From Candidatus Uhrbacteria bacterium (GTDB lineage: Bacteria > Patescibacteriota > Patescibacteriia > UBA9934 > UBA11717): a DNA stretch of 46,955 nt. Location of the stretch: NCBI GenBank assembly GCA_018701105.1, contig JABIWD010000004.1, positions 1 through 46,955 of the forward strand, in the 5' to 3' direction. The position numbers and the translations under genes are program-made. Shown one piece after another: positions 996 through 1,862 of this stretch. The notes beneath the pieces were generated by a model. That model did no database searches, was not told where the DNA came from, and saw only the letters and a list, made by a program, of their open reading frames with translations. Position 1 is the first letter of the stretch; each line of letters starts with the position of its first letter.

Positions 996-1024
996 TTGAC
1001 ATCGACCCTGAGAGCTGTTGTAAT
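996..1024 (+). promoter_or_regulatory. sigma70-type promoter of tRNA-like RNA copy 1 (TTGACA-N17-TGTAAT)
   Basis: TTGACA 996-1001, 17-bp spacer, TGTAAT 1019-1024; flanks (CCTATCCCCAACGACCC...GAGCTGTTGTAATAGAAGCA) nearly identical to copy 2. Confidence 0.75.
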
Positions 1025-1028
1025 AGAA

Positions 1029-1207
1029 GCAGCCTTGTGAGGTTTAAGACCTCCAAATTCAGGGTGGCGACAAATTACCTCCCCATTATTCGTCTCATTG
1101 AGATGAACGGGGAGGTTTTTGTATCTCATGGGCCCGTGGAGGTAATGGTAACCTTGCATGGTTTGCCACCCTGAGTCGCGGATTCGATTCCCGCCGGGTC
1201 CATGAGG
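1029..1207 (+). ncRNA. putative novel tRNA-like ncRNA, copy 1 (leader hairpin, antisense segment, terminator-like hairpin, tRNA-like 3' domain)
   Basis: tRNA-like domain 1130-1202: acceptor GGGCCCG/CGGGTCC, T-loop TTCGATT, D-like arm GAGG...CCTT, no normal anticodon loop; leader TTCAGGGTGGC (1058-1068) complementary to GCCACCCTGAG (1165-1175). Confidence 0.65.
1077..1120 (+). terminator. terminator-like hairpin inside the RNA copy 1 leader
   Basis: ACCTCCCC(1077-1084)/GGGGAGGT(1109-1116) plus inner TCGTCTC/GAGATGA, followed by TTTTT. Confidence 0.5.
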
Positions 1208-1218
1208 GTTTAACCTAT

Positions 1219-1242
1219 AAAAAAGCCGTAGCAAGTGCTACG
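1219..1242 (-). terminator. Rho-independent terminator of the 1238-1582 gene
   Basis: minus strand CGTAGCACTTGCTACGGCTTTTTT. Confidence 0.6.
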
Positions 1243-1582
1243 ACGATGTGCGGAAACGACCGAGAATGCCGGAACCAAACGACAAGAGTCCGAGCCAGAA
1301 CCATGCGACCACGATCACGAGCGCGCCCACTGGCATCACGTCGTACTGAACGAGATGAACGAGCACGATGAAGAAAGACAATGGCGCGGTGTAATAGCCC
1401 GTGCCAAAGATCGACGCCATCACCCAGACCAAGATCACTTTTCCGAATCCCGTCTCGCTCAATTGCATCGAAGTCTCACGGTCGCCGATCAAGAGTCCGG
1501 CCGCCATGAGCCCCGTTGCCCACATGATCCCGAACGTATACAGAAACTGCCACCACTCAACCGAAGAAGAATCGTAAAACAT
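1238..1582 (-). CDS. hypothetical small multi-pass membrane protein
   Basis: ORF from MFYDSSSVEWWQFLY with SD GGGGGAG; 3-4 hydrophobic segments. Confidence 0.6.
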   Translation of the reverse strand: MFYDSSSVEWWQFLYTFGIMWATGLMAAGLLIGDRETSMQLSETGFGKVILVWVMASIFGTGYYTAPLSFFIVLVHLVQYDVMPVGALVIVVAWFWLGLLSFGSGILGRFRTSS

Positions 1583-1647
1583 GACTCCCCCTTTCAACGC
1601 AAACATAACAATACATCGCTATAAAGTCAACCTATCCCCAACGACCC

Positions 1648-1676
1648 TTGACACCAACCTCGCGAGCTGTTGTAAT
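1648..1676 (+). promoter_or_regulatory. sigma70-type promoter of tRNA-like RNA copy 2 (TTGACA-N17-TGTAAT)
   Basis: TTGACA 1648-1653, 17-bp spacer, TGTAAT 1671-1676. Confidence 0.75.
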
Positions 1677-1680
1677 AGAA

Positions 1681-1862
1681 GCACGCAGGTGAGGAATTAC
1701 TTCCAAATCCTTGTTGACGACAATACACCTCCCCAATTTGTTGGGTGAGGTGTATTTGTTTTGAAACCCCAGTGGACCCTGGGCCCGTGGTGGTAATTGG
1801 TAACCTCACTTGCATCGTCAACAAGGGTCGCGAGTTCGAATCTCGTCGGGTCCACCACTGGG
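1681..1862 (+). ncRNA. putative novel tRNA-like ncRNA, copy 2
   Basis: tRNA-like domain 1781-1857: GGGCCCG/CGGGTCC, T arm GCGAGTTCGAATCTCGT, encoded ACCA; leader TCCTTGTTGACGA (1708-1720) complementary to TCGTCAACAAGGG (1815-1827); leader hairpin TACACCTCCCCAA/TTGGG-T-GAGGTGTA. Confidence 0.65.

What the first reader, a model, noticed from the sequence alone, without database searches (positions are those of the whole stretch)
996..1862. Two tandem promoter-driven tRNA-like ncRNA paralogs: candidate new RNA family
Seen directly: two same-strand units ~650 bp apart share a near-identical promoter block (CCTATCCCCAACGACCCTTGACA-N17-TGTAATAGAAGCA). Both then have the same order of parts: a leader hairpin (GAGGT/ACCTC in copy 1, GGAA/TTCC in copy 2), AAAT, a 10-13-nt variable segment, GACAA, a strong terminator-like hairpin, and a ~73-77-nt tRNA-like domain (GGGCCCG acceptor, T arm, CGGGTCC-A). 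Neither has a canonical anticodon stem-loop: copy 1 would have loop TTTGCCA with C37, and copy 2 needs a 9-nt loop. Inference: these are not decoding tRNAs but a dedicated structured RNA with a tRNA-like 3' domain. It is comparable in spirit to tmRNA or bacterial Y RNA (YrlA), but in a different arrangement.
Basis: partly seen in the sequence, partly recalled or inferred. Interest (0 to 1): 0.88.

Follow-up and report, generated by a model that had tools for sequence, protein, structure and literature searches.

The report
tRNA-like RNA with matching antisense leader
Two neighbouring genes each make a short RNA that ends at a terminator, followed by an alanine-type tRNA whose anticodon arm that short RNA is built to pair with on both strands; this self-matched pair recurs in dozens of Patescibacteria genomes with freely changing but always complementary sequences, and we know of no described RNA family with this arrangement.

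Summary
The 'variable segment' (B) is the exact antisense of the same unit's tRNA residues 34-43 (anticodon to end of anticodon stem). A second leader segment (A), starting at the predicted transcription start, is antisense to residues 22-31. A third copy lies elsewhere in the genome. A model of the tRNA domain alone found 81 leader-bearing members, nearly all in the window's own order (Candidatus Uhrbacteria). Residues 35-41 pair with B in 81/81, with all four Watson-Crick types at several positions. Within a genome every leader fits its own tRNA best (62/62). Thirty-one ordinary tRNAs of the genome show nothing like it. The tRNA has the alanine identity pair G3:U70, yet has C37 and a poor anticodon stem. 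A real intrinsic terminator separates leader and tRNA, its stem abutting B. A layout model finds relatives across Patescibacteria: patchy, 0-10 copies, no linked protein gene. Rfam sees only tRNA, weakly. Best mechanism (inferred): the terminated leader is an RNA antagonist that strand-invades and sequesters its own alanyl-tRNA-like partner, with a gene order like type III toxin-antitoxins. Function and toxicity are untested. The RNA family and its two-arm pairing are near-certain.

The parts
996..1024 (+). copy 1 promoter: TTGACA (996-1001), 17 nt, TGTAAT (1019-1024)
   Evidence: Sequence. Across the family 69 of 79 scored promoters have a 17-nt spacer and most score 9-11 of 12, against 7-8 for shuffles. 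The simple consensus scan did not report it because the -10 lacks A at position 2.
1033..1042 (+). copy 1 leader segment A (CCTTGTGAGG), predicted 5' end of the transcript; antisense to 1152-1161
   Evidence: starts 8 nt after the -10, pairs tRNA residues 22-31; 9 of 10 pairs with two G-U
1039..1053 (+). copy 1 leader hairpin P2 (GAGGT/ACCTC), overlapping the 3' part of A, so exclusive with A pairing to the tRNA
   Evidence: Sequence
1060..1069 (+). copy 1 leader segment B (CAGGGTGGCG), antisense to 1164-1173
1070..1122 (+). copy 1 intrinsic terminator T1; stem begins at the base after B, U-tract at 1116-1120
   Evidence: fold; family: first T1 pair at B's last base or the next one in 71 of 81; at least 6 T of 8 in 80 of 81
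1130..1202 (+). copy 1 tRNA-like RNA: G3:U70, A73, loop TTTGCCA (formal anticodon TGC, C37)
   Evidence: Rfam RF00005 37.5 bits; model R1 86.3 bits
1152..1161 (+). copy 1 tRNA residues 22-31, target of A
1164..1173 (+). copy 1 tRNA residues 34-43, target of B
1125..1128 (+). copy 1 5' flank CTCA, can pair with TGAG at 1203-1206 around the tRNA
   Evidence: Sequence; longer flank helices with compensatory changes in other members
1648..1676 (+). copy 2 promoter: TTGACA (1648-1653), 17 nt, TGTAAT (1671-1676)
   Evidence: Sequence, family statistics
1685..1694 (+). copy 2 leader segment A (GCAGGTGAGG), antisense to 1804-1813
   Evidence: 10 of 10 pairs with one G-U
1693..1704 (+). copy 2 leader hairpin P2 (GGAA/TTCC)
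   Evidence: Sequence
1710..1719 (+). copy 2 leader segment B (CTTGTTGACG), antisense to 1816-1825; exact match extends to 12 nt
1720..1759 (+). copy 2 intrinsic terminator T1, stem ACAATACACCTC/GAGGTGTATTTGT directly after B
   Evidence: Sequence
1781..1854 (+). copy 2 tRNA-like RNA: G3:U70, A73, CCA encoded at 1855-1857; loop ATCGTCA (formal anticodon CGT, C37)
   Evidence: RF00005 35.4 bits; RF00023 28.6 bits, below its cut-off of 47, on the alanine-type acceptor and T arm; R1 86.5 bits
1804..1813 (+). copy 2 tRNA residues 22-31, target of A
1816..1825 (+). copy 2 tRNA residues 34-43, target of B
1768..1775 (+). copy 2 5' flank CCCAGTGG, pairs with CCACTGGG at 1855-1862 around the tRNA
   Evidence: Sequence; family pattern

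Best explanation
Each unit encodes two RNAs from one strong promoter. Most transcripts are predicted to stop at T1 and give a leader RNA of roughly 90 nt (A, hairpin P2, B, T1). Read-through gives a tRNA-like RNA with alanine identity. The leader is a dedicated RNA antagonist of its own tRNA: the exposed U-turn anticodon loop pairs with the single-stranded part of B next to T1, the duplex grows into the anticodon stem (residues 34-43), and A captures the other strand (22-31). The anticodon and D stems are thus exchanged for about 20 intermolecular pairs, taking the tRNA out of any ribosomal or other use until leader levels fall. The gene order (RNA antagonist, terminator, effector) resembles type III toxin-antitoxin operons, but the effector here is an RNA. 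Shown by comparative sequence analysis: the two-arm complementarity, its covariation, its specificity, T1 and the alanine identity pair. Inferred: pairing in the cell, excess of leader, sequestration as its effect, and what the free tRNA does.
For: B helix: residues 35-41 have no mismatch in 81 members. Residue 36 shows 80 Watson-Crick pairs of four types (33.5 expected by shuffling) and residue 41 shows 80 (23.8 expected); residues 33 and 44 onward drop to or toward the shuffled level. Per-pair counts: 98.4% paired, 9 of 10 pairs with changes on both sides, against 78.8% for the anticodon stem itself. A helix: at least 77 of 81 paired at residues 23-28 and 30, and 72 of 81 at residue 31, where the cloverleaf 31-39 pair forms in only 36 of 81. 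Cognate leader is the unique best fit in 62 of 62 within-genome comparisons. Controls: re-partnered leaders and shuffles, ordinary tRNAs. T1 forms with probability about 0.93 in the free leader, and summed nearest-neighbour energies favour the hybrid in 97.5% of members (mean -9 kcal/mol, a rough estimate since the hybrid is pseudoknotted). U33 in 81 of 82 and purine 35 in 81 of 82 give a UNR U-turn, the kind of motif that speeds sense/antisense RNA pairing (PMC6562991). D-stem covariation shows the free folded tRNA is also selected. Patchy presence, 0-10 copies, differing within a genus. ToxIN has the same order with a terminator setting stoichiometry (PMC5772629).
Against: No expression, binding or toxicity data exist. 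A and B lie in the same order as their targets, so the full hybrid is a permuted, pseudoknot-like complex whose geometry was not modelled. Nothing links the units to mobile elements: no conserved neighbours, and no viral contig matched one strict tRNA pattern. About 9 of 81 members have the formal alanine anticodon TGC, so mistranslation cannot be a general toxic activity. The same pairing could occur in cis in the read-through RNA.
Confidence: 0.45

Rival explanations
1. Autoregulation by attenuation: mature tRNA binds the nascent leader of its own gene and changes termination at T1, in the manner of antisense attenuators of plasmids (pIP501) or a T-box.
For: Leader, terminator and cognate RNA are arranged as in attenuators. 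B directly abuts T1 in 71 of 81. The U-turn loop fits a fast RNA-RNA contact.
Against: T1 is already the dominant fold of the unbound leader (mean pair probability 0.93). No conserved antiterminator was seen, only occasional pairing of P2 with the T1 5' strand. B overlaps T1 by at most one base, so binding should not open it.
Confidence: 0.2
2. The read-through transcript is itself the working molecule: leader and tRNA domain pair in cis, giving a composite alanine-chargeable RNA with its anticodon masked, loosely like the tRNA-like domain of tmRNA.
For: AlaRS identity lies in the acceptor stem (G3:U70, A73; PMC9976931) and would survive opening of the anticodon and D arms. A conserved flank helix surrounds the tRNA. 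The cis fold is topologically possible.
Against: The D stem covaries in its own right, so the free cloverleaf is used. T1 has U-tracts and strand-biased A/T at its base in essentially all members, so it is a terminator rather than just a structural stem. No conserved reading frame was seen.
Confidence: 0.15
3. A dedicated non-ribosomal alanine donor (for example for peptidoglycan bridges) that the leader keeps out of translation.
For: Strict alanine identity together with a poor decoding loop (C37, frequent 31-39 mismatch).
Against: FemAB-type transferases occur in 71 of 73 genomes of the order whether or not the RNA is present, and the two genomes without a match (G050, 6 RNA copies; G031, 1) do carry the RNA. 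The RNA is absent from 27 of 59 good-quality genomes.
Confidence: 0.12
4. Ordinary or degenerate tRNA genes with a chance leader.
For: Rfam calls both tRNA; ARAGORN calls most family members tRNA, mostly Ser-TGA.
Against: Covariation, orthogonality and ordinary-tRNA controls exclude chance. A full normal tRNA set is present.
Confidence: 0.01

Closest known systems
Type III toxin-antitoxin operons (ToxIN)
   Same: Promoter, small RNA antagonist, intrinsic terminator, then the effector gene; the terminator is expected to keep the antagonist in excess (PMC5772629).
   Different: Effector is an RNA, not an endoribonuclease protein; neutralisation would be by base pairing; no repeats; no toxicity shown.
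RNA-RNA toxin-antitoxins and sense/antisense pairs (hok/Sok, SR4/bsrG; type VIII such as CreTA)
   Same: RNA antagonist, pairing starting at a U-turn loop, orthogonal pairs.
   Different: Antagonist is not transcribed from the opposite strand; complementarity is two 10-nt blocks in permuted order to a tRNA's D/anticodon arms. CreT sequesters a tRNA; here the tRNA-like RNA is what is sequestered.
T-box riboswitch
   Same: A 5' leader with a terminator that recognises a tRNA's anticodon region.
   Different: 10+10 bp to both strands rather than a 3-nt specifier plus acceptor-end pairing; no T-box or antiterminator; the downstream gene is the tRNA itself.
tmRNA tRNA-like domain
   Same: Alanine identity pair G3:U70, A73, T arm; anticodon function may be blocked.
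   Different: Has D arm and anticodon arm, no tag reading frame; a separate normal tmRNA exists.
Plasmid antisense attenuators (pIP501)
   Same: RNA pairing to a leader before a terminator, U-turn loops.
   Different: No antiterminator visible; the partner lies downstream on the same transcript.

Membership tests
Decoding tRNA | Cloverleaf with alanine or other identity and conserved T and D arms | tested here: met
   G3:U70 82/82, A73 80/82, T54, T55, C56 and A58 nearly invariant
Decoding tRNA | Paired anticodon stem and purine at residue 37 | tested here: not met
   Pair 31-39 forms in 36 of 81; C37 in 75 of 82 against purine in 31 of 31 ordinary tRNAs
tmRNA | Rfam RF00023 match above cut-off, tag reading frame, no D stem | tested here: not met
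   28.6 bits, below 47, on acceptor and T arm only; D stem conserved; real tmRNA at C48
T-box riboswitch | Rfam T-box match | tested here: not met
   No hit at gathering or E up to 5
YrlA / bacterial Y RNA | Rfam match to the family | tested here: not met
   No hit
Type III toxin-antitoxin | RNA antitoxin followed by a terminator and the toxin gene | tested here: inconclusive
   Order and T1 are as in ToxIN (PMC5772629), but that the leader is an antitoxin and the second gene a toxin is not shown
Type III toxin-antitoxin | Protein endoribonuclease toxin | tested here: not met
   The second gene is the tRNA-like RNA; no conserved neighbouring protein
RNA-RNA (type VIII-like) toxin-antitoxin | RNA effector with a specific complementary RNA antagonist | tested here: inconclusive
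   Specific complementarity is met at sequence level; effector and antagonist roles are not shown
RNA-RNA (type VIII-like) toxin-antitoxin | Growth inhibition by the effector RNA, relieved by the antagonist | not testable with these tools
   Needs expression experiments
Antisense transcription attenuator | Unbound leader prevents terminator formation | tested here: not met
   T1 probability about 0.93 in the free leader; thermodynamic prediction only

The most novel reading that the evidence does not exclude
A phylum-wide, previously undescribed class of RNA-only addiction or control modules in Patescibacteria, in which the effector is an alanyl-tRNA-like RNA and the antidote is a leader RNA from the same promoter that disassembles its D and anticodon arms by two-strand invasion, with pairs diversifying into orthogonal sets within one genome.
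Probability: 0.35. Interest if true: 0.93.

Novelty: categorically new. Interest (0 to 1): 0.86.

Why it matters
A tRNA gene whose own leader covaries with both strands of its anticodon arm, more strictly than the anticodon stem pairs with itself, is to our knowledge a new kind of RNA-RNA relationship. It occurs across a phylum of tiny, mostly uncultured bacteria. tRNA finders label most members as Ser, Ala, Thr, Leu or Pro tRNAs, so they probably sit mislabelled in many annotated genomes and inflate tRNA counts. It gives a directly testable case of a tRNA used for something other than decoding, and natural orthogonal RNA pairs.

Tried and rejected
Leader peptide: B often contains GTG, TTG or ATG (73 of 81), but members outside the order lack a Shine-Dalgarno and frames are not conserved, so the triplet is read as the complement of C37-A38-N39. 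tmRNA replacement: rejected, a normal tmRNA is present. Decoding role for a missing tRNA: rejected, full ordinary set. Leader aimed at housekeeping tRNAs: rejected, best score 5 of 10. Attenuation: not supported by folding. FemAB alanine donor: no co-distribution. Protein partner or defence linkage: no conserved neighbours; Pfam of the window's neighbours shows unrelated genes. Viral origin: no match of one strict pattern in viral contigs, a weak negative since the pattern fits only about a third of members. The consensus promoter/terminator scan missed both promoter and T1 because of its -10 and loop-size rules. R2 hits L196, L201, L203, L204, L205, L207 and L214 were inspected and judged false positives. 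L128 matched R1 without a leader and was dropped. Literature searches found no description of such a system; the library is incomplete.

Full report
WHAT IS THERE. The window comes from a genome of about 0.89 Mb with 63 contigs; relatives found by pattern search are named Candidatus Uhrbacteria (Patescibacteria). Positions 979-1202 and 1631-1864 hold two same-strand units that share a 23-nt identical promoter block. Each reads: promoter, leader, terminator hairpin T1, tRNA-like domain. A third copy lies at C25:5544-5625. Rfam assigns both window copies to tRNA with weak scores (37.5 and 35.4 bits; ordinary tRNAs of the genome score 51-77). ARAGORN calls neither one in the window.

THE KEY FEATURE. 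The leader's variable segment is the reverse complement of the anticodon region of the tRNA-like RNA in the same unit: TCAGGGTGGC in copy 1, CCTTGTTGACGA in copy 2, TCGGGTGATAA in copy 3. Relatives found only by similarity, mostly to the tRNA part, show the same with different sequences.

FAMILY. A covariance model of the tRNA domain alone (R1, 14 members, no leader included) found a clear high-scoring group in 73 genomes of the order. It also gave five hits among 390 genomes of the class, four of which have the leader. Adding members found by the first similarity search gives 81 leader-bearing members. Because the tRNA domain was the search query, the leader complementarity in this set was not selected for.

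COVARIATION OF SEGMENT B. In a fixed register, leader B pairs with tRNA residues 34-43. Residues 35-41 have no mismatch in 81 members. Residue 36 has 80 Watson-Crick pairs of four types (33.5 expected on shuffling) and residue 41 has 80 (23.8 expected). Pairing falls to or toward the shuffled level at residue 33 and at 44 and beyond. On a 32-member alignment the B helix is 98.4% paired with two-sided changes in 9 of 10 pairs, and the whole structure exceeds all 500 shuffles and all slid controls. The anticodon stem is 78.8% paired.

COVARIATION OF SEGMENT A. A second leader segment pairs with residues 22-31, the 3' strand of the D stem plus the 5' strand of the anticodon stem: mean score 9.0 against 3.8 for re-partnered leaders. 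At residue 31 the leader pair forms in 72 of 81 members, while the cloverleaf pair 31-39 forms in only 36 of 81. The leader pairing is thus more strictly kept than the anticodon stem itself. A starts 8 nt after the -10 box in the largest group of members (6-9 nt in most), that is, at the predicted first nucleotide of the transcript.

SPECIFICITY AND CONTROLS. In 19 genomes with two or more copies, the cognate leader is the unique best match for its tRNA in 62 of 62 cases (18.2 of 20 against 8.2 for non-cognate). Thirty-one ordinary tRNAs of the window's genome have no comparable upstream segment (maximum 6.0, mean 4.1; family mean 9.4). The genome's three leaders do not fit its ordinary tRNAs (maximum 5).

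THE TERMINATOR. In 71 of 81 members the T1 stem begins at the last base of B or the base after it. Its base has A on the 5' side and T on the 3' side (324:39 and 361:34), and 80 of 81 have at least 6 T in 8 nt. It is the dominant fold of the unbound leader (mean pair probability 0.93). A B-tRNA helix could therefore stack directly on T1. A second, flank helix surrounds the tRNA in most members, with visible compensatory changes, and many have another hairpin with a T-run further downstream.

THE tRNA. G3:U70 is present in 82 of 82 R1 hits and A73 in 80 of 82; G3:U70 also in 24 of 25 members from the layout-model search. These are the main alanine identity elements in bacteria (PMC9976931), so charging by AlaRS is expected from established knowledge, not shown. 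U33 (81/82) and purine 35 (81/82) are kept, matching the UNR part of the U-turn motif that speeds sense/antisense pairing (PMC6562991). Residue 37 is C in 75 of 82, whereas all 31 ordinary tRNAs have a purine there. Formal anticodons vary: TGA 38, TGC 9, TGT 6, TGG 6 and others. The D stem covaries independently of the leader, so the free cloverleaf is also under selection. Two alternating states are implied.

DISTRIBUTION. A layout model containing B, T1 and the tRNA (R2) matches 37 of 73 genomes of the order. Absence includes 27 of 59 good-quality genomes, and presence differs between species of one genus (for example 6 copies against 0 in g27). It matches 49 of 390 genomes of the class. In the wider phylum a smaller set survived inspection, including several genomes of family f145 with two or three copies each and members in f109, f124 and f233. 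R2 includes the B helix, so in those hits B complementarity is partly by construction; segment A was not in the model and still matches better than control (mean 6.6 against 3.3). Not every class-level hit was inspected one by one. No conserved neighbouring gene was found. A strict tRNA pattern, which fits about a third of members, found no viral contig. One hit sits on a 5.4-kb contig labelled Omnitrophota (L148), probably mis-binned.

MECHANISM. The best fit is sequestration: a short terminated leader RNA, made from every transcription event, strand-invades both halves of the D/anticodon region of its own alanine-type tRNA. Summed pairing energies favour the hybrid in 97.5% of members, a rough estimate because the complex is pseudoknotted. 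Gene order matches ToxIN, where a terminator before the toxin gene keeps the RNA antitoxin in excess (PMC5772629). Patchiness, copy-number variation and orthogonal diversification fit an addiction or defence module better than a housekeeping RNA. Toxicity, pairing in cells and the role of the free tRNA are unproven. Attenuation and a cis-folded composite RNA remain possible. A general mistranslation toxin is unlikely because about 9 of 81 members carry the alanine anticodon TGC. A role tied to FemAB transferases is not supported.

VERDICT. The family and the two-arm leader-tRNA complementarity are as solid as comparative sequence evidence can make them; the function is inferred.

Noticed in passing
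L071, L076, L099, L100, L115 (order members): The loop of T1 carries long inserts (tens to over 100 nt) that fold back on themselves, sometimes with simple-repeat-like sequence, while the T1 stem and the A/B complementarity stay intact.
   Followed up: no
L148, around 2120 on the minus strand: A member on a 5.4-kb contig in a genome labelled Candidatus Omnitrophota: either a mis-binned Uhrbacteria contig or transfer between phyla.
   Followed up: partly
3' flanks of members: The 5' flank TATCCCGGGCC and 3' flank GGCTCGGGACCA of the tRNA are strongly conserved and complementary, followed in many members by a hairpin with a T-run; such a helix may affect RNase P processing.
   Followed up: partly
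window 1238-1606, minus strand: A 122-aa open reading frame between the two units, with no Pfam or NCBIfam match.
   Followed up: partly
G000 C23:5742-5815 (L010): The genome has an ordinary tRNA-Ile with anticodon TAT as called by ARAGORN, unusual among bacteria, which mostly use tRNA-Ile(CAT) with lysidine.
   Followed up: no
L217 (phylum member): The tRNA domain has a broken acceptor end and lacks G3:U70 while the leader B pairing is largely kept: possibly a decaying copy.
   Followed up: no
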